DNA of 35,511 bases from an uncultured bacterium. GTDB taxonomy: Bacteria; DRYD01. Positions 194-29,508 of this stretch are shown here, piece after piece. The DNA lies in NCBI GenBank assembly GCA_937139605.1, contig CAKZQG010000041.1, forward strand, positions 1-35,511, in the 5' to 3' direction. How positions within the stretch are numbered: the stretch's first letter is position 1; each line of letters opens with the position of its first letter. Position numbers and translations under genes: made by a program. Below the pieces are notes generated by a model. That model was not told the origin of the DNA. It was given only the letters and a program-made list of their open reading frames with translations, and searched no databases.

Positions 194-349
194 TTATGTT
201 TCCCTCCTTTTGGTTTTATTTTTAAAGAGGATCCTTATTAAAAAATTTAATTAATAACTTTTAAATTCCTTTTTAAAGCTTTATTTATTTTGTTAAAAAT
301 TTTTTAAATTTTTTTTAAATTTTTATTAATTTTTTTTTGGGGTTTTTTG

Positions 350-1140
350 TTTTCTTTTAGGTTTGGAATTTTTTTGTTATCAGATTTAGATTTTTATATT
401 ATGCGTAGATTTTTTTATGCTTATTTTTTAGTTAAGCTCAGCTTTTTAGTTAGCTTTAAATTTTTCCTAGAGTTCCGGTTTTTTTGAAGTTCAGTTTTCT
501 CCTTAGGATCAGTTTTTTAATTGGCGTGTTTTTTTTCCATTTTAGGATCAGTTTTTTTTCATTAGGTTAAGATTTTTTCCTTAGTATGGTTTTTTCCTTT
601 TAGGTTCAATTTTTTCTTCTCAGGATCAAATTTTTTCATTAGACTTAGATTTTTCATTAGGTTTAGATTTTTCAGTTAGAGGCAGGTTTTTCATTAGGTT
701 CAGTTTTTTCTCTTAGGCTTAGTTTTTTTGGTTTGTTCATTAGGTTTATTTTTTTCTCCTCAAGCTTATTTTTTAGGTAGGTGTTTTTTATTTTAGGCTT
801 AGGTTTTTTCTTTTAGGCTCAAATTTTTTTCCTTAGACTAGTTTTTTCCATTTGAGGTTTGGTTTTTATCTTAGGAACAAATTTTTTAGACTTAGACTAA
901 AATTTCTCGTTAGTTTTAGATTTTTTACCTTAAGCTAAGATTTTTTAGTTAGAGTTAGTTTTTTTCATTAGATTCATTTTTCCCCTTAGGCTTATTTTTT
1001 TAGGTAGGTGTTTTTTGTCTTAGAATTAGTTTTTTCTTTTAGATTCAGTTTTTCACTTAGGTTTGGAATTTTTCTTTTGAGATTTTTCTCTTGAGATTTT
1101 TCTCTTAGATAGAGATTTTACCTTTAAGGCTCAGATTTTT
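350..1140 (-). repeat. Degenerate ~19-bp T-tract tandem repeat array (left array)
   Basis: By eye this contains roughly 35 head-to-tail copies of a unit near TTAGGTTTAGATTTTTTC (plus strand), 17-22 bp long, each with a 5-8 base T run. Clear consecutive copies lie at about 637-720. Variants replace the GGTTTAG part with GGCTTAG, GGATCAG or GACTTAG. Unit lengths vary and are not multiples of three, and stops occur in all frames, so it is not coding. A higher-order duplication is visible: 764-789 and 990-1016 are the same 26-base element (one T inserted), about 226 bp apart. The A-rich form of the unit is on the minus strand, pointing away from the decayed genes to the right. Bases 194-349 between this and the lipoprotein are only A/T runs. 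Confidence 0.85.
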
Positions 1141-1226
1141 ATCTATGCTTTTGATTTTTTTACGGTTTTTTCTGCACTTTTTCTTTACAATTTTTTTTCT
1201 CTATAGTTTAGCTTTCTATTTTTTAT

Positions 1227-1559
1227 CTATCCTTTTATTATTTTATATAGCTCTTTATAAGGGATGTCTTCTTCTAATATTTCCTTTAACTTTATCAATT
1301 GGTATCCATAGTTAATTTTCTCTATTGTAGTTATAAATTCTACCCATTATTTTTTTAATTTTACCTTTAGTAATGAATATACTGTCTCTTTTAAAGCATT
1401 TATTTTTAGCTGTTTTAATTGTTCATCTTTTTGTTCTAATTTTTCTTAGTATTTTTTCATTTCTTCTTTGTGTGTTTCCAACTCCTCTTGGTATCTTTTC
1501 TTTTTATCTTCAAAGATTGATTTAGCTATATATTGTATTAACAGATTATCTTTATACAT
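1227..1559 (-). pseudogene. C-terminal remnant of an Rpn-type PD-(D/E)XK nuclease/transposase, copy 2
   Basis: The minus strand from 1559 to a TAG at 1229-1227 reads as 111 codons in one frame. It starts with MYKDN-LLIQYIA-KSIFED, then a Lys/Glu/Gln-rich helical stretch, and ends near KLKEILEEDIPYKELYK. Two in-frame TAA stops break it, at 1448-1446 and 1349-1347. The opening block is nearly the same as the tail of the neighbouring remnant (MYKDN-PLIQYIA-ETIFED near 1914), so this is a second, independent tail of the same family without its catalytic N-terminal part. Such charged, coiled-coil-prone tails are common at the end of Rpn/PDDEXK-family proteins. It is most likely a fossil of a tandem duplicate. 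Confidence 0.7.
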
Positions 1560-1638
1560 CCTCTTTATTTTTTCTTTTTTGTCTACCCTTATTTTACACA
1601 TTGCTTAAAAGTTAAACAAAATTTAAAATAATTAAAAT

Positions 1639-2574
1639 TTAAATAAATTGATTAATTTGGTTTAAGTATTCTTCTTTTGGTAATTCTAATTCTAATATTT
1701 TTCTTATTTTATTCAATGTAGAGATGTCTTCTATTTTCTGTATTTTTTAAAATTATATGATCTATATTTTTTCTTATCTTTATCCTTAATAATATCTCTA
1801 TTATTTCTCTCTCTTTTCTATTTCCTTTTGTTTTAATTGTTCTTGGTATTTTTTTAATTCATCTTCAAATATTGTTTCTGCTATATATTGTATTAACGGA
1901 TTATCTTTGTACATCCTCTTTATCTTTTCTTTATCTTTTCTTTCTCTTTTTTATCTATCCTTAACATCTTTAAAACTTCACCATTGATACTTTAGATCTC
2001 TTTAAATACATTAACTACTTATCATTTTCAACAATATCTCCTCTTTTTCCTTATATATCCCTTTCTTTGTCTTCTCTTCTACTAAGTCTATCATTTCTTT
2101 GAGTTTATTTAAATTATAATTGCTTGTATAACTTTTTATTAGCTCTATTAACCCTAAATAATCTCTTTTTCTTATTATTTCCCTTATCTCTTCATTTAAT
2201 AAATTTATTACCATTACCTCTACTTTTATAAAATCTATTCCCTTTTTATTCTCTTTCTTCATCCCTTCTTTTACCTTGTAATAAAATACCCCTTTACTTC
2301 TCGAATACCTTTTATCTATACTTAATATCATACTTAATACCGGTAAATTGTATTCTTTTTTTATTAAAATATTATACATCACAGCTTTTAATATGCTCTC
2401 TTTATTAAGTTTTGTCTGAAACTCTATGTTTAATAAGTAATATTGATTTTTAATTTTTAATTTGATAACAAAATCTGGAATAATTATTTTCGGATGTTGC
2501 TCTTTTATTTTTATCACTTTTATATCTGTTATATTTTGTATTTTAAATAAATCAGACAATAGTTTAGCTGGGGT
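1639..2574 (-). pseudogene. Decayed Rpn-family PD-(D/E)XK nuclease/putative transposase, copy 1
   Basis: The longest intact piece is 2559-2011 on the minus strand (182 codons). It has no ATG start: it opens at TTG, and a TAA lies five codons upstream at 2577-2575. It keeps the nuclease core of the family: PD at residues 28-29 (IIIPDF), then NIEFQTK with Glu46 and Gln48, matching the D...E-x-Q signature of Rpn (recombination-promoting nuclease) proteins. The usual N-terminal segment before the core is missing. After the stop at 2011 the C-terminal part continues in shifted frames: MYKDN-PLIQYIA from 1914, more stops near 1815, then LNKIRKILELELPKEEY ending at a natural-looking TAA at 1641-1639. 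I infer a gene broken by a lost start, frameshifts and stops. The family is described as transposase-like or DNA-cleaving. Confidence 0.75.
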
Positions 2575-2734
2575 TTAAAAACGTTCGTAAAATATGTTTT
2601 TTAAATAATAATCTATATCCTGTTAAATTTTTATTCTCTAATGTTTTTTTTGAATTTTGTCTTTTTGAGATTTTTATTTATTTTTTAGTTTTTCCCTTTT
2701 GATCAAAAATAGTAAAAAAGTAAGCATTAATAAA

Positions 2735-3350
2735 AAAATGAGTTCTAAGGGAAAAGCTAAACTTTAGAAAAAAAACTGAGTATGCAAAAAACTAAACTTG
2801 TGAGAAAAACTAAGCCTGAGATAAAAACCTAAGTTTTACAAAAAAATCTAAATCTATAGAAAATCTTAGCTTCAGAAAAAAAATGATAGAAAATCTGAAT
2901 CTAAGAGAAAAATTCCAAATCTAGGATAAAATCTAAACCTAATAAAAAATCTGGATCCCTGAGAAAAATCAAAACCTGATAGAAAATTTGAATCTAAAAA
3001 GAAAAATCTAACCTAAGAGAAAAGTGTAACCTAAAATAAAAAGCTAAACGCAAGAGAAAACCTGAACCTAATAAAAAAAACAAACTCAAGAGAAAAATCT
3101 AAACCTCAAGAGGAAAAACTTAAACTCAAGAGAAAAATCTAAACTCAAAAGAAAAATCTAAACTCAAAAAAAATTAAACTCAAAAAAAATCAGACCCAAG
3201 GGAAATACAAATTCAGGAGAAAAATTCCAAACCCAACGGAAGAACTCAAACGAGATGAAAATCTGAACCTGAAAGAGAAATTACAAATCCAACTGAAAAA
3301 TTTGAACCCAAGAGAAAAATAAAATCTGAAAAAAACTAAACTTTAGATAA
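2735..3350 (+). repeat. Degenerate ~19-bp A-rich tandem repeat array (right array, inverted relative to the left array)
   Basis: About 30 copies of a unit near GAGAAAAATCTAAACCTAA lie head to tail on the plus strand. Good consecutive units run at about 3089-3166, with lengths 20, 20, 19 and 19. This consensus is the reverse complement of the left array at 350-1140, so the two arrays are divergent around the decayed Rpn genes. TAA/TGA stops occur in all frames and unit lengths are not multiples of three, so it is not protein coding. No unit is internally palindromic and no unique spacers alternate with exact repeats, so it is not a CRISPR array. The gap 2575-2735 holds only AT-rich sequence with no gene. 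Confidence 0.85.
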
Positions 3351-3399
3351 AAAAATAATAAATAATAGAAATAAAAGAATTTTTTTAATTTATTTTTAT

Positions 3400-4070
3400 A
3401 GTTATTTTTTTTTATCAATGAGTTTTACTTCTATTTTTGTGATTTTTTTTTGTTTTTTAGTTTTTAGGGGGTTTTTTGAGTTTTTTGTCATATTTCCCTT
3501 TTAAATTACTTTTTAGCAAATTTATTTTACTTTTTCTTTTGTTTTTCCTTTCTTTTGCTTTTCTTTTTCCTTTATGAAGCTATTTTTTGTTAATATTTTT
3601 ATTTTCCGTTTGGACTTATTTTTTTAGAGTTATTTTTTGTCAATTGGTTTTAGTTTTTTAAACTACTGTATTTTTTCAATTTAGAATTTGTTTTTTAACA
3701 TTTTTTTTATTTTTTTCTTTGGGCACTTTCTTTTCTTTTAGAGTTAGTTTTTTATAAATTGGATTTAATTTTTTTACTCGGTAGTTATTTTTTATTTAGA
3801 GTGTATTCTTTGCAATTAGTTTTATTTTTTCTTTAATAAGATTTTACTTTTAGATTTATTTCTTTATCAATATTTAATCTTTTATACTGGGGGGTGTTGT
3901 TTTTATTTTAGAAAATTTTGTTTTTCATTTAGAATTGTTTTTTAGTAATTATGTTACATTTTTTAGGTATTCTTTTTTTCTTAAATTTACTTTTTAAAAT
4001 AATCACTTTCATTTTTTTATTGATTTTATTTTTTTTGTTATTTATTTTTTTCTTTTTTTCATTTTTTTTC
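3400..4070. repeat. T-rich degenerate repeat field with a ~114-bp higher-order period
   Basis: This stretch is strongly T-rich on the plus strand. Blocks starting at 3621 and 3735 align over about 70 bases (TTTTAGAGTTA, then a T run, CAATTGG/AAATTGG, GGTTTTAG/GGATTTAA, ACTACTG/ACTCGGT, and so on). That gives a period of 114 bp, and a shorter related block begins near 3577. The units differ from the 19-bp arrays to the left but share the short-word-plus-T-run style. From 4070 to 4325 only near-homopolymeric T-rich sequence follows; the open frame there would encode an 83-residue run of Phe, Leu and Val and looks like a composition artefact. I see no gene here. Confidence 0.65.
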
Positions 4071-4390
4071 TAGTTGGTTTGTTTCTTTATTTTTGTTTTA
4101 TTTACTGTTGATTTGACAGTTTTCTTTGTGTTTATTTTTTCTTTTGATTTAATTTTGCTCTATGTTTTATTTTTTCCTGTTTGTTCCAATTTTTTCTTCT
4201 TGGTTTTATTTTCCTTTTTATTTCATTCTTTTCTATTTTTTTATCTTTATTCTTTTTGTGTTTGTTTTTTTGTTTATTTTATTTTTTCTTTTATATTATT
4301 TTTTTATGTTTTGTTTATAGGATAACAAAAAAATATGTAGAATAATAATAAGAGAAAAATAAAATAAAGATGATAATAAGAATGTAATTA

Positions 4391-21762: not shown

Positions 21763-23301
21763 ATGAAGAGATTGCCAATAGGGATAAGCGACTTTAAAGA
21801 ATTAATAACAAATAATTACATATATGTAGATAAAACCAAATATATATATGAATTATTAAGTAGTTGTAAATATGTGTTTTTAAGTAGGCCAAGACGTTTC
21901 GGAAAATCACTGTTATTATCTACAATAGAATATTTACATGAAGGTCAAAGAGAATTATTTAATGGATTGTATATAGAGAATAAATGGAACTGGAGTGAAA
22001 AATATCCAGTAATAAAAATAAACTTTGCAATAGATATAAAAACAAGTAGTGAAATATATGAGGTAATAAGGAACGAGATAAGGTTGAATTATAAGAGAAT
22101 GGAAATAGGGAAGGAAAGGGAAGAGAAGCATGTAGGGTTAATGTTACAGAATTTAATAATAGAAGTAAGTGAAAGATATAATAAGCAGGTAGTAGTGTTA
22201 ATAGATGAATATGACAAGCCGATATTAGATTTAATAGAAGATAAGAATCAAGCCGAAGAGGTGAGGAAGACATTAAAGAGTTTCTATTCAGTATTAAAGG
22301 TGTTAGATAAATATATAAGATTTGTGTTAGTAACGGGAGTAAGTAAATTTGCAAAAGTATCATTGTTTAGTGGGTTAAATCAGTTAGAGGATATTTCATT
22401 AAGCAAGGAATACGGAGATATATGTGGATATACGCAGCAAGAGTTAGAATATTATTTTAAAGAGTATTTAAAAGGAATAAATATAGAAGAGGTAAAGGAA
22501 TGGTATAATGGGTATAATTTTTTAGGTAGTAGGGTATATAATCCGTTTGATGTGTTATTATATTTAAAGAAGAGGGAGGTAAGGAATTATTGGTATGAGA
22601 CGGGAAGAACGGAGTTCTTATTTAAAATAATAAAACAAAAGAACTTTGATTTACCATATTTACATAAGAAATATTATACAAGCGAGATATTGGAGAAGTT
22701 TGACATAGAGTATATAAGTATAGAAGCATTAATGTTTCAAACAGGGTATTTAACTATAAAGGAGGAGTATAAGTATGAAAATGAAGAGGTTTTGTATTCA
22801 TTAGATTACCCGAATAAGGAAGTAAGAAAATCATTTAATAGTGAGATATTATTTTATATAACGGGGGATTATCAAATAGATAGGACAACATTAATAAATA
22901 TAGCATTTAAAAAAGAAAATCTACAAGAGATAAAAAAACAGATAGAGGTGTTTATAAGTACAATAAGTTATGAAGTATTAAAAAATGAGTATGTATATGC
23001 AGCAGCGATATATGGATTAGTATATGCAACGGGATATAATGTAATAATAGAAGATAATACATCAAAAGGGAGGATAGATTTAACAATAGTAGTGGATAAA
23101 AAAGTAGTGTATATAATAGAGTTTAAAGTGCTAGAGAATGAAAGAGAAAAAGGGAAGGCGTTAAAACAGATAAAAGAAAAAGAGTATCATAAGAAGTACT
23201 TAAATTGCGAGAAGATATATTTAGTGGGGATAGAGTTTGATAAGGTAAAAAAGGAGTTAATTAATTTTGAGTATGAGATAATAGGTGGTGTTGGAAAATG
23301 A
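21763..23301 (+). CDS. AAA-ATPase with C-terminal PD-(D/E)XK nuclease, paralogue 1
   Basis: A 512-residue fusion of an AAA-ATPase-like domain (PF09820 type) and a PDDEXK_9 nuclease (DUF1703/PF08011 type). Function is unknown in the family; DNA processing, defence or mobile-element roles are suspected. The N-terminal signature LPIGISDFKELI is followed by the P-loop SRPRRFGKS (41-49, Lys48). Walker B is VVVLIDEYDKPI with Asp148 and Glu149. VTGVSKFAKVSLFSGLNQL is the sensor-like strand. The nuclease has RIDLTIVV (Asp439) and IIEFKV (Glu453, Lys455), followed by the conserved KALKQIKEKEYHKKYL helix. GGGGGT lies before the ATG. It is first of three tandem paralogues, and its stop overlaps the next start (ATGA, 23298-23301). 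The middle block matches paralogue 3, the C-terminal block paralogue 2. Confidence 0.9.
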   Translation: MKRLPIGISDFKELITNNYIYVDKTKYIYELLSSCKYVFLSRPRRFGKSLLLSTIEYLHEGQRELFNGLYIENKWNWSEKYPVIKINFAIDIKTSSEIYEVIRNEIRLNYKRMEIGKEREEKHVGLMLQNLIIEVSERYNKQVVVLIDEYDKPILDLIEDKNQAEEVRKTLKSFYSVLKVLDKYIRFVLVTGVSKFAKVSLFSGLNQLEDISLSKEYGDICGYTQQELEYYFKEYLKGINIEEVKEWYNGYNFLGSRVYNPFDVLLYLKKREVRNYWYETGRTEFLFKIIKQKNFDLPYLHKKYYTSEILEKFDIEYISIEALMFQTGYLTIKEEYKYENEEVLYSLDYPNKEVRKSFNSEILFYITGDYQIDRTTLINIAFKKENLQEIKKQIEVFISTISYEVLKNEYVYAAAIYGLVYATGYNVIIEDNTSKGRIDLTIVVDKKVVYIIEFKVLENEREKGKALKQIKEKEYHKKYLNCEKIYLVGIEFDKVKKELINFEYEIIGGVGK

Positions 23302-24827
23302 AGAGATTGCCAATAGGGATAAGTGATTTTAGAGAGTTAATAAAGGGAAATTATGTGTATGTAGATAAGACGAAGTATATATATGAGTTAGTAAGTAGTT
23401 CGAAGTATGTATTTTTAAGTAGGCCAAGACGCTTTGGCAAGTCGTTATTATTATCTACAATAGAATATTTATATGAATCTAAAAGAGAATTATTTAATGG
23501 ATTGTATATAGAGAATAAATGGAACTGGGATGAAAAATATCCGGTAATAAGAGTGGATTTTTCAGTGGATATAAGAGAGTATAAGGGAGTATATAATAGG
23601 ATAGAAGATGAACTAGAGATTAACTATAAGAAATATAAGATAAAAGAAGATAAAAAGAAAGATGGAATAAGGAGATTTAGAAAATTAATAATGGATTTAA
23701 GTGAGAAGTATAATAAGCAGGTAGTGGTATTAATAGATGAGTATGATAAGCCGATATTAGATCTAATAGAAGATAAGAAACAAGCAGAAGAAGTAAGAAA
23801 AATATTAAAGGAATTTTATTCAGTGTTAAAAGGGTTGGATAAATATCTAAGATTTGTGCTAGTAACGGGGGTAAGCAAATTTGCAAAAGTATCATTATTT
23901 AGTGGATTAAATCAATTAAAGGATATCTCATTAGATAAAAGGTATGGGGATATATGTGGATATACTCAAAGTGAATTAGAGAATTATTTTAAAGAATATT
24001 TAAGAGATGTAAATATAGAAGAAGTAAGAGAATGGTATAACGGATATAATTTTTTAAGCGATAAAGTATATAATCCATTTGATGTGTTGTTATATTTGGA
24101 TAAAAAGGAGATAAGGAATTATTGGTACGAAACGGGAAGAACAGAGTTTTTATTTAAAATAATAAAACAAAGGAACTTTGATTTACCATATTTGTATAAG
24201 AGATATTATACGGAAGAGATATTAGAGAAATTTGACATAGAGTATATAAGTATAGAAGCAATAATGTTTCAAACGGGGTATTTAACAATAAAAGAGATAG
24301 AAAAGTTAGGGGCAAGAGAAGTATATACATTAGATTATCCAAATAGGGAAGTAAGAGAAGCATTTAACAATGAGTTATTATTTTATATAACGAGAGATTA
24401 TAAACAATATATAACAAAACCATTAGAATTGGCATTAATAAAAGAAAATCTGGAAGAAATAAGAAAGCAAATAGAAGTGTTTATAAATTCAATAAGTTAT
24501 GAAGTATTAAAAAATGAGTATGTATATGCAGCAGCAATATATGGATTAGTATATGCAACGGGATATAATGTAATAATAGAAGATAATACAAGTAAAGGGA
24601 GAATTGATTTAACAATAATAGTAAATAAAAAAGTAGTGTATATAATAGAGTTTAAAGTGCTAGAGAATAAAAGAGAAAAAGGGAGGGCACTAAAACAGAT
24701 AAAAAATAAAGAGTACTTTAAAAAATATCTAAATTATGAAAGGATATATTTAGTGGGGATAGAATTTGAGAAGATAAATAAAAATTTGGTTAATTTTGAG
24801 TATGAAGTAATAGGAGGTAAAAAGTAA
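23298..24827 (+). CDS. AAA-ATPase with C-terminal PD-(D/E)XK nuclease, paralogue 2
   Basis: Same fold order as its neighbours, 509 residues: SRPRRFGKS P-loop at 41-49, LIDEYDKPI Walker B, VTGVSKFAKVSLFSGLNQLKDIS, and a nuclease with Asp437 (KGRIDLTIIV), Glu451 and Lys453 (IIEFKV). All expected catalytic residues are present. The region between the P-loop domain start and Walker B (about residues 92-135: EYKGVYNRIEDELEINYKK onward) is unrelated in detail to paralogues 1 and 3, while the last third is nearly the same as paralogue 1. The ATG overlaps the preceding stop and GGTGTTGG lies close upstream. The stop (24825-24827) directly abuts the GTG of paralogue 3, so translation is probably coupled along the whole set. 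Confidence 0.9.
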   Translation: MKRLPIGISDFRELIKGNYVYVDKTKYIYELVSSSKYVFLSRPRRFGKSLLLSTIEYLYESKRELFNGLYIENKWNWDEKYPVIRVDFSVDIREYKGVYNRIEDELEINYKKYKIKEDKKKDGIRRFRKLIMDLSEKYNKQVVVLIDEYDKPILDLIEDKKQAEEVRKILKEFYSVLKGLDKYLRFVLVTGVSKFAKVSLFSGLNQLKDISLDKRYGDICGYTQSELENYFKEYLRDVNIEEVREWYNGYNFLSDKVYNPFDVLLYLDKKEIRNYWYETGRTEFLFKIIKQRNFDLPYLYKRYYTEEILEKFDIEYISIEAIMFQTGYLTIKEIEKLGAREVYTLDYPNREVREAFNNELLFYITRDYKQYITKPLELALIKENLEEIRKQIEVFINSISYEVLKNEYVYAAAIYGLVYATGYNVIIEDNTSKGRIDLTIIVNKKVVYIIEFKVLENKREKGRALKQIKNKEYFKKYLNYERIYLVGIEFEKINKNLVNFEYEVIGGKK

Positions 24828-26363
24828 GTGAAGAAATTACCAATAGGAATAAGTGATTTTAGAGAACTAATAGAGGGTAATTATGTGTATGTAGATAAAA
24901 CGAGATATATATATGAATTGTTAAGTAGTTCGAAATATATATTTTTAAGTAGGCCAAGAAGGTTTGGAAAGTCGTTATTGTTATCAACAATAGAATATTT
25001 ATATGAAGGGAAAAGAGAATTATATAAGGGATTGTACATAGAGGATAAATGGGATTGGAGTGAAAAATATCCAGTAATAAGAGTAAACTTTGCAATAGAT
25101 ATAAAAACAAGTGGTGAAATATATGAAGTAATAAAGAATGAAGTAAGGTTAAATTATAAGAGAATGGAAATAGAGAAGGAAAAGGAAGAAAATCATGTAG
25201 GGTTAATGTTACAGAATTTAATAATAGAAGTAAGTGAAAGATATAATAAGCAGGTAGTAGTGTTAATAGATGAATATGACAAGCCAATATTAGATGTAAT
25301 AGAGGATAGAAAACATGCAGAAGAGATAAGAAAAACATTAAAGAGTTTCTATTCAGTATTGAAGGCATTAGATAAATATATAAGATTTGTGTTGGTAACG
25401 GGGGTGAGTAAATTTGCGAAAGTATCTCTTTTTAGTGGGTTAAATCAGTTAAAGGATATATCATTAGATAAAAGGTATGGAGACATATGCGGATATACGC
25501 AAGAAGAATTAGAGAATTATTTTAAAGAGTATCTGGATAATGTAAATATAGAAGAAGTAAAGGAATGGTATAATGGATATAATTTTTTAGGTAGTAAGGT
25601 ATATAATCCCTTTGATGTGTTGTTATATTTAGATAAGAAAGAGATAAGGAGTTATTGGTATGAGACGGGAACCCCAAGTTTTTTAATAAAGTTAATAAAA
25701 CAAAAGGAGTATAATATAGTGGAATTAGAAGGAATAAAAGCGGATGAGAGTTTATTAAATAAATTTGATGTAGAAGAAATAGAAATAGAAGCGATAATGT
25801 TTCAAAGTGGATATTTAACCATAAAGGATTATAAGGTAAGTGAAAATGGGATATTGTTTGAGTTAGGATTTCCGAATAAAGAGGTAAGAGTATCATTTAA
25901 TAGAGATATATTGTATAATTTAGTAAAACAGAAATCAAAGGTAAATGTAATAGCAGAAAAAATAATAGAGATATTAAAAACAGAAAAAATAGAGGAGTTA
26001 AAGGAACAAATAGAGATATTAATAAGTGCAATAAGTTATATGTATTTAAAGGAAGAATATAGTTATGTAATAGCAGTATATAGTATGTTATATACAACGG
26101 GATTGAATGTAATAATAGAGGATAACACATCAAAAGGGCGGATAGATATGAGTGTGATAGTAGATAAAAAATTAGTGTATATAATAGAGTTTAAAGTGCT
26201 AGAGAGTAAAAGAGAAAAAGGGAGGGCATTAAAACAAATTAAAGAAAAAGAATACTTTAAAAAATATTTAAATTATGAAAAAATTTATCTATTAGGGGTA
26301 GAGTTTGATAAAAATAATAAAGGATTAGCTAATTTTGAATATGAATTAATAAATAGAGATTAA
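24828..26363 (+). CDS. AAA-ATPase with C-terminal PD-(D/E)XK nuclease, paralogue 3
   Basis: 511 residues, with a GTG start directly after the TAA of paralogue 2 and TAGGAGGT at 24811-24818 as ribosome site. P-loop SRPRRFGKS at 41-49, Walker B LIDEYDKPI, and nuclease residues Asp440 (KGRIDMSVIV), Glu454 and Lys456 (IIEFKV). The middle segment before Walker B is near identical to paralogue 1. The central segment after the GT/YET motif (TPSFLIKLIKQKEYNIVEL onward, about residues 280-415) diverges from the other two, which carry a TEFLFKIIKQ-NFDLPYL version. This variable block sits between ATPase and nuclease, where a partner- or target-recognition surface could be. Intact active sites suggest it is functional. 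The prepilin-like gene follows after 52 bases. Confidence 0.9.
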   Translation: MKKLPIGISDFRELIEGNYVYVDKTRYIYELLSSSKYIFLSRPRRFGKSLLLSTIEYLYEGKRELYKGLYIEDKWDWSEKYPVIRVNFAIDIKTSGEIYEVIKNEVRLNYKRMEIEKEKEENHVGLMLQNLIIEVSERYNKQVVVLIDEYDKPILDVIEDRKHAEEIRKTLKSFYSVLKALDKYIRFVLVTGVSKFAKVSLFSGLNQLKDISLDKRYGDICGYTQEELENYFKEYLDNVNIEEVKEWYNGYNFLGSKVYNPFDVLLYLDKKEIRSYWYETGTPSFLIKLIKQKEYNIVELEGIKADESLLNKFDVEEIEIEAIMFQSGYLTIKDYKVSENGILFELGFPNKEVRVSFNRDILYNLVKQKSKVNVIAEKIIEILKTEKIEELKEQIEILISAISYMYLKEEYSYVIAVYSMLYTTGLNVIIEDNTSKGRIDMSVIVDKKLVYIIEFKVLESKREKGRALKQIKEKEYFKKYLNYEKIYLLGVEFDKNNKGLANFEYELINRD

Positions 26364-26415: not shown

Positions 26416-29400
26416 ATGAAAAATGTAAAGCCTATTAAATTTATTAAATTAAAAAGTCTTTATTTTTTTAAAGATGGATTAAGTTTAAACGGATTGAGTT
26501 TATTAGAAATGATTGTAGCTATATCTATTATGTTAATATTTTTTGCGATTAGTGTTGGATCTTTTATGTTTTTTTATTATAATTTCCCTGTTTCAGGAAA
26601 ATATAAAGAAACGTCTATATTTAGGACGGTTTATTTCGAATTATCTCGAGCTATTAGAGAAGCTACTACAGTTAAACAAATCTATAACACATACCCTAAT
26701 AAAGCTATATACTTAACAGTTGATAATTATATATATGCTTATAAATTGGATACTAATACTAAAAAGCTTTACAAATCAATAGATGGAGGACATACCTTTT
26801 ATCCTTTACCTAACGCATATAACATTAAAGATATTAATTTTAAAAATAAATCTTCAATAGTTTATGTTTATTTTTATACAGAATTTAATAATATAAAAAA
26901 AGAGCACGCATTTTTAGCTAAAATCAGAAAAGAAATTAAAAATAACGCCTATTTTATTATCTCAGGGATAAACCCTACTACTAATTTAATTGAATATTCA
27001 ATTAGTAACTCTGAAAATTTATTCCCTAATTTTACTAATTTAAATGCTTCTAATACTAATAATGCTTTTAATATTGATACTAAATTAGGGTCTTATAATA
27101 TAGTTTTTTCTAAAATAAGACCTGCTACTTCTTATTATTATCTTTTTAAATCTTATAAAAATACATTTACTTCTAACTGGAATTATAAAGACTTAGATAA
27201 TACTAACCCTTATTCTTATTCTGTTCCTTCTACTGCTAACTCTTTAGGAAGTAGAACTAAAATTTTAACAGTTGGAAACTATTTATATACTTGTTATGTT
27301 AATAACACAGAGTTTCTTTATGATCCTGCTGATGGACAGTTTAAACGGTATAGTGTTTTGTATTTTGCTTATAGGAAATTGGATAGCGTTTATAAAGGAA
27401 ACTGGGTTAAACTAGAAGTTTTCAGATTCCCTTTTATTTATACTTTTAATGGAAGAAATTATAATGTAGTAATAAGGTATCCGAGATTAACTTATTCTTT
27501 ATCTGTTTCTAATAGATTCTTTATTGTTTTTGCCACTGAAAGAACAGGGGGATCTAATAATAGTATAAATTCAGTTAATGATATGTATTTAGCTTATAGT
27601 TCTGATGCAATTAACTGGAGTGTTATTAACTTGGATAAAAAATTAATGGGAGCTACTGAAAATAATTTATATCCAAGAATCCCTATAGTTTTAATAGGTA
27701 ATATAGCTAATACACCTAATACTATACATTTTATTTTTTATAATAATACTACTTCTGCTCCTTATGCAAACGATATTTGTTATTTTTCTACTAATGATTT
27801 AGTTAATTTTTCTGCCATTCAATCCTTAAATGATCAAGCTTATTATCAGAATAATTCAAGACCAATAACAATAAATACATTTAGAGACTTAGATGCTTAC
27901 TTTTATAATAACTCTATTAATATTGTAGTTAGTATAAGAGGTCAAGCTAATGGAGCCTGGAACGGTAATAGAGATAAATTAGTTTATCTTAGGAAATCTA
28001 CTTTTAATAATAGAACTGATTACAATTTTTATCCTACAGGTAATAATGATAATACTTTTAATAGTTGTTCAATTTTATTAACTCCAAAAACTTATTCTAC
28101 TGATAATTTAGGAGAAGTTCATATAGTTGCTTATTCTTCTACTGATGGGAGGATAATTTACTTAAGAAGTACCTTTACTGATTCTTTAAATCCTACTATT
28201 GGTTTTACTGCTTTTACAAATACTTTAACTACAAATACTTTCCCATTTTTAGATATAATTTATTCTATTCCTGCAATTGCTAATACTGTTTATATACATG
28301 TTTTAGGGTATAATATAACTTTAAGTGATTTAGATTATTTTAGAATAACTTCTAATTCTGCTGGAGTTTCTTTTAGTAGAGTAAATAATAATACTATTGA
28401 TGATAATATAAATGTAGCAAGTAGTAGTGTTGATAATCAAAGGATATTTACTGAAAATAAGAATAATGGAAGAATACCTGGGATTACTGTGGATTTAAAT
28501 AATAATTTACATATGATAACTTATGATTTAACTGATTCTTCCTTAGGTGAAGTTATATATTTAAATGCTAACGGAACTCTAACTAATACTGGCAGATTTG
28601 ATACATTGTTAATAGATGATGGGTTTCCTTATTTTAAAAGCATTAATTATGACAAAGATAACACTAATGAAGTAGTTAGTTATTATGATTATGATACTAA
28701 TAGTACTCCTGGGTTACCTCCCACTGGAAGATTAGCTGATTTGAAATTAAATATAAATGGATGGATAACAAGGATAGATGGACATAGAAGATTTGATACT
28801 AATACTGCTAATAATAATATGTTTTCTACTGTTGGTGCTTATCCTTGTGGATTTTATAACGATGTTAAATTAGTTAATAACTATATTTATGTAGCATATT
28901 CTGAAAGACAAACAACCAATAGATTAAGGTTAAAATTAGCTATTTCAAAGGACTTAGGACAAACATGGGAATACCAGTATACCGATACTTCTACTGCTAA
29001 TCATGCAAGAAATATTAACTTGGAAATAACTAACAATGGAATATACATAATTCATACTACCAATACTAATACTAATAATTTAAGAATAACTTATAAAAAT
29101 TTTGGTTCATTATTATGGAATACAATACCTTTTAATACAGTATCTGCTAATTATTTAAGAAATTTTAAAGATAAAAATAATAATATCCATATTTTAGCTA
29201 TTAACTCCACAACTAATACAGCTAATTATATTTTTTATAATACTTCTACTAATACGATAAATAATGAAATTTTAAATACTCAATATTTATCATCAGGGAT
29301 AACGGGATTTGGAAGTTATGGAGATATAAAAGTAGATGATAATTTAAATGTTTATATAGCTATAAATACAAGGAGAGGATTAACTAATGGGAATGATTTA

Positions 29401-29508
29401 TTAATAAAAAAAGGTAATGCTTGGCAACCCCCTATAAGATTACCTAATAATACCAACCCTATTAACTATTTTCTTAATTCTATTAGATTAGATATTGGTA
29501 GTTTTTAA
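26416..29508 (+). CDS. Giant prepilin-like protein with Asp-box (sialidase-like propeller) motifs
   Basis: Residues 21-50 form a class III/type IV prepilin leader: N-G26|LSLLEMIVAISIMLIFFAISVGSF. The Gly before the cleavage site and Glu at mature +5 are both present, so PilD-type cleavage and assembly into a pilus or pseudopilus is expected. A short GLSL repeat at 21-24 precedes the true site. Most pilins are 120-250 residues; this one is 1030. The body is Asn/Thr/Tyr-rich beta sequence with Asp-box motifs typical of BNR/sialidase propeller blades: SIDGGHTF at 121-128, SSDAINWS near 396, and SKDLGQTWEY at 844-853. I infer a pilus-tip or surface-tethered propeller, perhaps for adhesion or glycan binding. 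No other pilin, ATPase or peptidase gene is in the window. The ribosome site lies in a 12-bp tandem repeat. Confidence 0.75.
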   Translation: MKNVKPIKFIKLKSLYFFKDGLSLNGLSLLEMIVAISIMLIFFAISVGSFMFFYYNFPVSGKYKETSIFRTVYFELSRAIREATTVKQIYNTYPNKAIYLTVDNYIYAYKLDTNTKKLYKSIDGGHTFYPLPNAYNIKDINFKNKSSIVYVYFYTEFNNIKKEHAFLAKIRKEIKNNAYFIISGINPTTNLIEYSISNSENLFPNFTNLNASNTNNAFNIDTKLGSYNIVFSKIRPATSYYYLFKSYKNTFTSNWNYKDLDNTNPYSYSVPSTANSLGSRTKILTVGNYLYTCYVNNTEFLYDPADGQFKRYSVLYFAYRKLDSVYKGNWVKLEVFRFPFIYTFNGRNYNVVIRYPRLTYSLSVSNRFFIVFATERTGGSNNSINSVNDMYLAYSSDAINWSVINLDKKLMGATENNLYPRIPIVLIGNIANTPNTIHFIFYNNTTSAPYANDICYFSTNDLVNFSAIQSLNDQAYYQNNSRPITINTFRDLDAYFYNNSINIVVSIRGQANGAWNGNRDKLVYLRKSTFNNRTDYNFYPTGNNDNTFNSCSILLTPKTYSTDNLGEVHIVAYSSTDGRIIYLRSTFTDSLNPTIGFTAFTNTLTTNTFPFLDIIYSIPAIANTVYIHVLGYNITLSDLDYFRITSNSAGVSFSRVNNNTIDDNINVASSSVDNQRIFTENKNNGRIPGITVDLNNNLHMITYDLTDSSLGEVIYLNANGTLTNTGRFDTLLIDDGFPYFKSINYDKDNTNEVVSYYDYDTNSTPGLPPTGRLADLKLNINGWITRIDGHRRFDTNTANNNMFSTVGAYPCGFYNDVKLVNNYIYVAYSERQTTNRLRLKLAISKDLGQTWEYQYTDTSTANHARNINLEITNNGIYIIHTTNTNTNNLRITYKNFGSLLWNTIPFNTVSANYLRNFKDKNNNIHILAINSTTNTANYIFYNTSTNTINNEILNTQYLSSGITGFGSYGDIKVDDNLNVYIAINTRRGLTNGNDLLIKKGNAWQPPIRLPNNTNPINYFLNSIRLDIGSF

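What the first reader, a model, noticed from the sequence alone, without database searches (positions are those of the whole stretch)
21763..26363. Three coupled AAA-ATPase/PD-(D/E)XK nuclease paralogues form a possible undescribed system
Three full-length paralogues with intact P-loops, Walker B motifs and D...E-x-K nuclease residues lie head to tail, joined by a 4-base overlap and a zero-base junction, behind one dyad and strong ribosome sites. All three remain intact, while the Rpn genes 20 kb away have decayed. Retention of three different versions suggests a hetero-oligomer or a recognition repertoire. The family is known but its function is not.
Basis: partly seen in the sequence, partly recalled or inferred. 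Interest (0 to 1): 0.7.

Follow-up and report, generated by a model that had tools for sequence, protein, structure and literature searches.

The report
Shuffled ATPase-nuclease gene repertoire
Three adjacent bacterial genes belong to a large scattered family of ATP-driven DNA-cutting proteins whose two most variable segments are swapped between copies like interchangeable cassettes, which suggests a repertoire of receptors, perhaps against viruses, rather than one three-part machine.

Summary
In detail: three intact head-to-tail genes, each PF09820 (AAA-ATPase_like) plus PF08011 (PDDEXK_9), the "DUF1703" family. The "three coupled subunits" reading does not hold. The genome has 6 intact copies, 8 broken ones and several contig-end fragments. 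The trio is absent at the matching places in the sister genome, and most relatives elsewhere are lone genes with no recurring neighbour.

New here:
(1) Both predicted models match STAND NTPases (archaeal SSO1545 and PABY2304, CED-4, resistosomes) joined to a PD-(D/E)XK nuclease.
(2) Co-resident copies share a conserved chassis (dN/dS 0.10-0.17) with two hypervariable cassettes, VR1 (aa 85-140) and VR2 (aa 285-400). These are exchanged independently, in this genus and in several unrelated lineages, isolates included. All six intact copies have a different VR1 x VR2 combination.
(3) All eight broken copies carry ~30-bp palindromic inserts that occur almost only inside this gene family.

Most likely mechanism (inferred): each gene is a single-protein STAND-type receptor-nuclease, and recombination shuffles its specificity. 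Anti-phage function is plausible but untested; neighbourhood and PADLOC evidence do not support it. The family and its recombination were known (Cardinium). In the library searched I found no report of the cassettes, the STAND assignment or the palindromes.

The parts
21763..23301 (+). T1: STAND-like AAA-ATPase + PD-(D/E)XK (PF09820 + PF08011), 512 aa
23298..24827 (+). T2: same family, 509 aa; starts on the ATGA overlap with T1; AF2 model pLDDT 89
24828..26363 (+). T3: same family, 511 aa, GTG start, zero-base junction with T2; AF2 model pLDDT 92
23301..24371 (+). T2 residues 2-358: part that aligns with STAND NTPases, read as NBD, helical and winged-helix domains
   Evidence: 2fna Z 16.3 (281 aligned), 2qen Z 16.3, CED-4 Z 14.1
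23421..23444 (+). T2 Walker A, family form RPRRFGKS
23550..23717 (+). T2 VR1, hypervariable cassette 1 (aa 85-140; two helices between strand 2 and Walker B)
24150..24497 (+). T2 VR2, hypervariable cassette 2 (aa 285-400; end of the STAND module plus linker)
22015..22185 (+). T1 VR1 (same type as T3; about 91% nt identity over this stretch), limits approximate
22618..22968 (+). T1 VR2 (type of T2, C4 and C28 copies; closest to the C4 copy), limits approximate
25080..25250 (+). T3 VR1 (type of T1), limits approximate
25683..26036 (+). T3 VR2 (type of the C2 copy, 89-96% nt; about 55-75% to T1 and T2), limits approximate
24510..24785 (+). T2 PD-(D/E)XK nuclease domain with D437, E451, K453
   Evidence: CidB nuclease Z 13.3

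Best explanation
T1-T3 are three members of a multigene repertoire of single-protein receptor-nucleases. Each has a STAND-type NTPase switch (shown as fold similarity of predicted models) followed by a PD-(D/E)XK nuclease (shown by sequence and fold). The chassis is conserved; two cassettes, VR1 in the nucleotide-binding domain and VR2 at the end of the STAND module and linker, differ sharply between co-resident copies and are exchanged independently by homologous recombination (shown). Inferred: the cassettes carry specificity for a trigger; trigger binding lets the ATPase switch oligomerise, and the nuclease then cuts nucleic acid. Also inferred: the trigger is a phage or mobile element and the outcome is defence. 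Tandem and dispersed copies, including broken ones, form the pool from which new combinations arise (shared cassette types shown, donor role inferred). T1-T3 are adjacent because of repeat recombination, not because they are subunits of one machine (inferred from junctions and tree).
For: Domains. Models and STAND/nuclease fold. Mosaicism in G000: PHI 0.296 against 0.491 +/- 0.005 in permutations, 0/2000; VR1 T1=T3 91% nt and T2=C2 copy 91%, VR2 T2=C28 copy 92-93% and T3=C2 copy 89-96%, with other types down to 41-60%. In G001, 6 VR1 and 4 VR2 types give 15 combinations in 28 intact copies, with VR1-VR2 identity correlation 0.04; the same nearest neighbour for VR1 and VR2 in 1 of 28 copies, PHI 0/500. 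Pairs such as chassis 74-89%, VR1 31%, VR2 97%. The same in unrelated lineages: a Chlorobiaceae MAG and the isolates Methylotuvimicrobium buryatense and Halovibrio variabilis, and G056. Selection: chassis dN/dS 0.10-0.17, closest same-type VR2 pairs 0.05-0.06. T3 keeps T2's secondary structure in both VRs. No partner gene: no Pfam family in more than 2 of 118 neighbours. Broken copies hold the same cassette types in other combinations.
Against: No functional data. PADLOC has no convincing model for these proteins, and neighbours are not visibly enriched in defence genes (a few of 118 near against a few of 71 far). There is no LRR/TPR-type sensor, so the recognition role of VR1/VR2 is inferred from variability alone. 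Variability could equally reflect insulation of self-oligomerisation between paralogues, or DNA-target recognition. G000 and G001 are draft metagenome-type assemblies, so chimeric assembly of repeats is a general worry, though intact frames, 75-85% paralogue identity and the same pattern in isolates argue against it.
Confidence: 0.5

Rival explanations
1. Selfish gene family: the copies spread and recombine because they are repeats, and perhaps because their nuclease provokes conversion (homing-like). Variable regions are places that tolerate divergence; the host gains nothing.
For: 19 PF09820 matches in G000 and 32 in G001, 0 in most other relatives; scattered single genes with no partner; copies on 62 plasmid and 33 phage-like records; 8 broken copies; odd third-position G content, about 0.19 against 0.05-0.10.
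Against: Chassis dN/dS 0.10-0.17 across all intact copies; same-type VR2 pairs as low as 0.05, so cassettes are constrained, not just tolerant; all 28 scored full-length G001 copies are open.
Confidence: 0.25
2. Hetero-oligomer: T1, T2 and T3 are co-translated subunits of one complex, with paralogue-specific interfaces in VR1/VR2.
For: Head-to-tail coupling; the three differ mostly in the VRs; STAND proteins oligomerise (general knowledge).
Against: No orthologous trio in the sister genome; trio members are not each other's nearest relatives; the T1/T2 junction recurs at a pair whose first gene is broken; most relatives are lone genes.
Confidence: 0.08
3. Recombination or DNA-transfer nucleases comparable to Rpn (YhgA-like), acting in genome rearrangement rather than defence.
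For: Same nuclease superfamily; family copies lie at a synteny break between uvrC and mfd.
Against: No Rpn Pfam match; the fold is a STAND switch, not a minimal nuclease. Rpn itself is now reported as anti-phage toxin-antitoxin (PMC10327210).
Confidence: 0.1
4. Secreted effectors towards a eukaryotic host, as proposed for Cardinium DUF1703.
For: Siozios 2019 predicts secretion of the Cardinium paralogues (PMC6387759).
Against: T1-T3 begin directly with the family motif MKxLPIG and show no obvious signal peptide by eye; the family also occurs in free-living thermophiles and chemolithotrophs. Secretion was not predicted with a tool here.
Confidence: 0.03

Closest known systems
DUF1703 / PF09820-PF08011 family (Knizewski 2007, PMC1913061; Cardinium expansion, Siozios 2019, PMC6387759)
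   Same: Same two domains, same variant Walker A RPRRFGKS; lineage-specific expansions with intragenic recombination already reported in Cardinium and a midge Rickettsia.
   Different: A text search of the Cardinium paper for hypervariable or variable regions found none. Here recombination is resolved into two cassettes on a conserved chassis, the ATPase is placed in the STAND class by structure, and palindromic elements are found in the copies.
STAND NTPases of the archaeal type (SSO1545 2fna, PABY2304 2qen) and Avs/NLR receptors
   Same: Residues 2-358 match 2fna and 2qen at Z about 16; CED-4, Apaf-1, NRC4 and Avs5 also match, Avs3 in the T2 search.
   Different: No C-terminal TPR/LRR/WD40 sensor; the nuclease follows the STAND module directly and variability sits inside the switch itself.
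Type I restriction specificity subunit HsdS (TRD shuffling; general knowledge)
   Same: Two variable segments on a conserved frame, exchanged by recombination among copies.
   Different: No homology; here ATPase and nuclease are in the same chain, and what the segments recognise is unknown.
DGR-diversified NACHT/STAND sensors (PMC10907252)
   Same: Diversified putative sensors tied to STAND switches.
   Different: Diversity there comes from reverse-transcriptase mutagenesis; here from cassette exchange between paralogues.
Rpn nucleases (PMC10327210)
   Same: PD-(D/E)XK superfamily, variable segment, multi-copy, anti-phage.
   Different: Different Pfam family, no ATPase, variable C-terminal antitoxin translated from within the gene.
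Rickettsia palindromic elements (comparison for the inserts; general knowledge)
   Same: Small palindromic inserts in coding genes, some in frame.
   Different: Only about 30-32 bp, with a 4-bp TATA repeat, and nearly confined to one gene family.

Membership tests
[quoted passage not shown]
   219-228 bits against cut-off 26.1, all three proteins
DUF1703 (PF09820 + PF08011) | C-terminal PDDEXK_9 domain with D...E-x-K | tested here: met
   60-67 bits against cut-off 25.5; D437, E451, K453 invariant in 82 homologues
STAND NTPase | NBD-helical-winged-helix module like Apaf-1/CED-4/archaeal STAND | tested here: met
   Two predicted models, Z 16 to 2fna/2qen and 12.5-14 to CED-4/Apaf-1/NRC4; fold evidence on predictions only
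STAND NTPase | C-terminal superstructure-forming sensor repeats | tested here: not met
   The chain ends in the nuclease at residue about 509; Pfam shows no repeats and the models none. So it works like a STAND switch but is not a canonical repeat-sensor STAND protein.
Known anti-phage defence system | Match to a PADLOC model | tested here: not met
   Only marginal Cas4_II hits, E 0.004-0.013
Known anti-phage defence system | Location among defence genes | tested here: not met
   No visible enrichment near against far; output is truncated, so only a coarse test
Known anti-phage defence system | Protects cells from phage | not testable with these tools
   Needs a bench assay
Rpn (YhgA-like) nucleases | Match to an Rpn Pfam model | tested here: not met
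   Only PF09820 and PF08011 match
Fixed three-gene system | Trio conserved in relatives at the same locus | tested here: not met
   Absent after uvrC and before mfd in G001; G000 copies form one clade
HsdS-like TRD repertoire (works like) | Two variable segments recombining independently on a constant frame | tested here: met
HsdS-like TRD repertoire (works like) | Variable segments determine target specificity | not testable with these tools
   Needs cassette swaps

The most novel reading that the evidence does not exclude
A bacterial innate-immune receptor family built like a combinatorial repertoire: STAND-nuclease receptors whose two specificity cassettes are reshuffled by recombination among dozens of co-resident copies. 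Some copies are parked as a silent archive by tiny palindromic elements that insert at fixed sites of this family, so that inactivated copies still feed the expressed set. Consistent with this, four of the eight broken copies have no lesion other than the palindromes, and copies sharing the same frame-breaking element keep dN/dS 0.10-0.15 at dS 0.5-0.9. Translational bypass of the elements is also not excluded.
Probability: 0.15. Interest if true: 0.88.

Novelty: new variant of a known kind. Interest (0 to 1): 0.62.

Why it matters
DUF1703 proteins occur across many bacterial phyla, sometimes in dozens of copies, and no function was found in the literature searched. Showing a STAND-type switch, a nuclease and two recombining specificity-like cassettes turns "function unknown" into a direct test: swap a cassette and see whether the trigger changes. 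If true, bacteria would have another way, beside DGRs and restriction-specificity shuffling, to diversify receptors by recombination. The palindromic elements confined to the family are a separate oddity worth study.

Tried and rejected
PADLOC and NCBIfam gave no named system. A sequence search of the PDB with an 82-sequence profile found no relative. Conserved neighbour or partner gene: none among 118 neighbours. Defence-island enrichment: not seen. An orthologous trio: rejected. Shared flanks as evidence of a transposon around the genes: only some copies share flanks (C2/C28 upstream with lipoprotein-like repeats; C28/C9 1.3 kb downstream), so segmental duplication is likelier than a defined element. 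Palindromes in IMG/VR viral contigs: 16 pattern matches, none with an inner stem, none in a family gene, so chance. Rfam: no match for the palindromes. Element model in G002, G050, G056: no match. Copies of the pCALNI01 plasmid were too few or too similar to test shuffling. VR1 cassettes shared between G000 and G001: none above 40%. Searches with literal PD-(D/E)XK terms were not accepted.

Full report
1. Observation. The window is a whole contig (C41, 35,511 bases) of a 1.88-Mb assembly, 88.5% complete, in 45 contigs. All have PF09820 and PF08011, the DUF1703 architecture of Knizewski 2007, whose variant Walker A RPRRFGKS is found here. The upstream dyad is ordinary for the AT-rich gap.

2. 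The trio is part of a large family. The genome has 19 PF09820 matches and 22 PF08011 matches. Six full-length copies are intact (T1-T3 and copies on C4, C2 and C28), eight are broken, and the rest are cut by contig ends or are fragments. The one held genome of the same genus (G001, MAG RSWP7, JAPYWL01) has 32 matches, 28 full-length intact copies in the tree set, and tandem arrays of up to five in a row. Most other genomes in the relatives sample have none.

3. The trio is not a conserved unit. All six intact G000 copies form one clade (100/100) apart from G001's; T1 is nearest a C4 copy and T3 a C2 copy. In G001, uvrC has no family copy after it, and the pilin-like/mfd block has one copy in the opposite orientation. 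The T1/T2 junction is about 95% identical to that of a C4 pair whose first gene is broken, and three of the four junctions of the G001 C73 array are nearly identical to each other. In 80 loci from the genome collection most copies stand alone within about 8 kb. Of 118 immediate neighbours no Pfam family matches more than two, and PADLOC matches are no commoner near than far.

4. Two hypervariable cassettes. Identity along the gene drops in the same two places in G000 and G001, aa 85-140 (VR1) and aa 285-400 (VR2). In G000 the cassettes follow different partners: for VR1, T1 goes with T3 and T2 with the C2 copy; for VR2, T1 goes with the C4 copy, T2 with the C28 copy and T3 with the C2 copy; PHI is far below all 2000 permutations. 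Four VR1 and two VR2 types give six different combinations in six copies; in G001 six and four types give 15 combinations in 28 copies, with no correlation between VR1 and VR2 identity. VR1 and VR2 have the same nearest neighbour in only 1 of 28 copies. Examples: chassis parts 79/74/89%, VR1 31%, VR2 97%. Unrelated lineages show the same: a Chlorobiaceae MAG array (VR1 98%, VR2 71%, first chassis part 80%), the isolates Methylotuvimicrobium buryatense (chassis 87-96%, VR1 34%) and Halovibrio variabilis (chassis 92-99%, VR1 54%, VR2 98%), and G056 (VR1 25%, VR2 96%, chassis 81-96%). The isolates and the modest paralogue identity argue against assembly chimeras. The chassis is under purifying selection (dN/dS 0.10-0.17), and the closest same-type VR2 pairs more so (0.05-0.06).

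5. Fold. AlphaFold2 models of T2 (pLDDT 89.1) and T3 (92.3) are confident and keep the same secondary structure in both VRs despite different cassettes. Residues 2-358 match archaeal STAND ATPases 2fna and 2qen at Z about 16 and CED-4, Apaf-1 and NRC4 at 12.5-14; the C-terminal part matches the CidB nuclease at Z 12-13. VR1 is a pair of helices between strand 2 and Walker B; VR2 covers the end of the STAND module and the linker. Whether VR1 and VR2 touch in space could not be checked.

6. Mechanism. The most likely reading is a STAND-type switch that, on meeting a trigger, oligomerises and activates its nuclease, with VR1/VR2 setting the trigger. Fold, cassettes and selection are shown; trigger, oligomerisation and outcome are inferred. 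Defence is the commonest role of such designs, but neither PADLOC nor neighbourhood supports it here. The strongest rival is a selfish, recombining gene family.

7. Palindromic elements. All eight broken copies carry small palindromes of the form TATAACGA-stem-GTAT-stem'-GA(A)GTTATATGAAA, 30-32 bp plus a 4-bp TATA-like repeat, at fixed sites. Inner stems differ between element types with compensatory changes (covariation score 0.381 against 0.164 shuffled, 0/500). An exact pattern has 27 matches in the genome, 26 inside family copies and none for the reversed control. A covariance model gives 38 hits, all in family copies, four of these at contig ends identified as family fragments; only the 150 best candidates were scored. 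In G001 two of three hits are in family copies; one of these genes stays open with an in-frame insert. Four of the eight broken copies have no other lesion, and segments downstream of a shared frame-breaking element keep dN/dS 0.10-0.15. This fits recent spread of elements into diverged working copies, by conversion or site-specific insertion; bypass is not excluded. Element-free T1-T3 are thus part of the minority still fully open. Broken copies carry the same cassette types as intact ones in other combinations, so they could act as donors.

8. Novelty. The family, its ATPase and nuclease, and paralogue recombination were known. I found no report, in the open-access library searched, of the two cassettes, the STAND assignment or the palindromes; absence there is not proof of absence.

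Noticed in passing
L047, L052-L057 (G000 contigs C4, C33, C5, C9, C45, C6); none in the window's trio: About 30-bp palindromic elements with compensatory stems and a 4-bp TATA-like repeat, 38 of 38 model hits inside copies of this gene family; they are the only lesions in four of eight broken copies.
   Followed up: partly
L069:6620-6649 and L061:5801-5830 (G001): The same kind of element in two G001 family copies; in one (L069) it is in frame and the gene stays open, adding 12 residues after GLYI.
   Followed up: partly
L077:2977-3012 (G001:C100:10976-11011): A single degenerate element outside any family copy, the only exception found.
   Followed up: no
window 21763-26363: Third codon positions are unusually G-rich and C-poor (G about 0.20-0.23) compared with the other window genes tested (0.05-0.10); G001 copies show it too (mean 0.18 against 0.06-0.08).
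   Followed up: partly
window 26416-29508: A 1030-aa protein with a type IV pilin-like N-terminus and no Pfam match, kept next to mfd in G001 (69% identity).
   Followed up: no
window 300-4300: Repetitive low-complexity stretch around an Rpn-like remnant (open frame 2011-2574), with many short Lys/Asn- or Phe/Leu-rich frames.
   Followed up: no
L050 and L049 flanks: Family copies on C2 and C28 share about 1.2 kb of upstream sequence coding for lipoprotein-like repeats; C28 and C9 share 1.3 kb downstream.
   Followed up: partly
L231 (Calditerrivibrio plasmid pCALNI01): Several family copies on one 58.7-kb plasmid, two of them nearly identical.
   Followed up: partly
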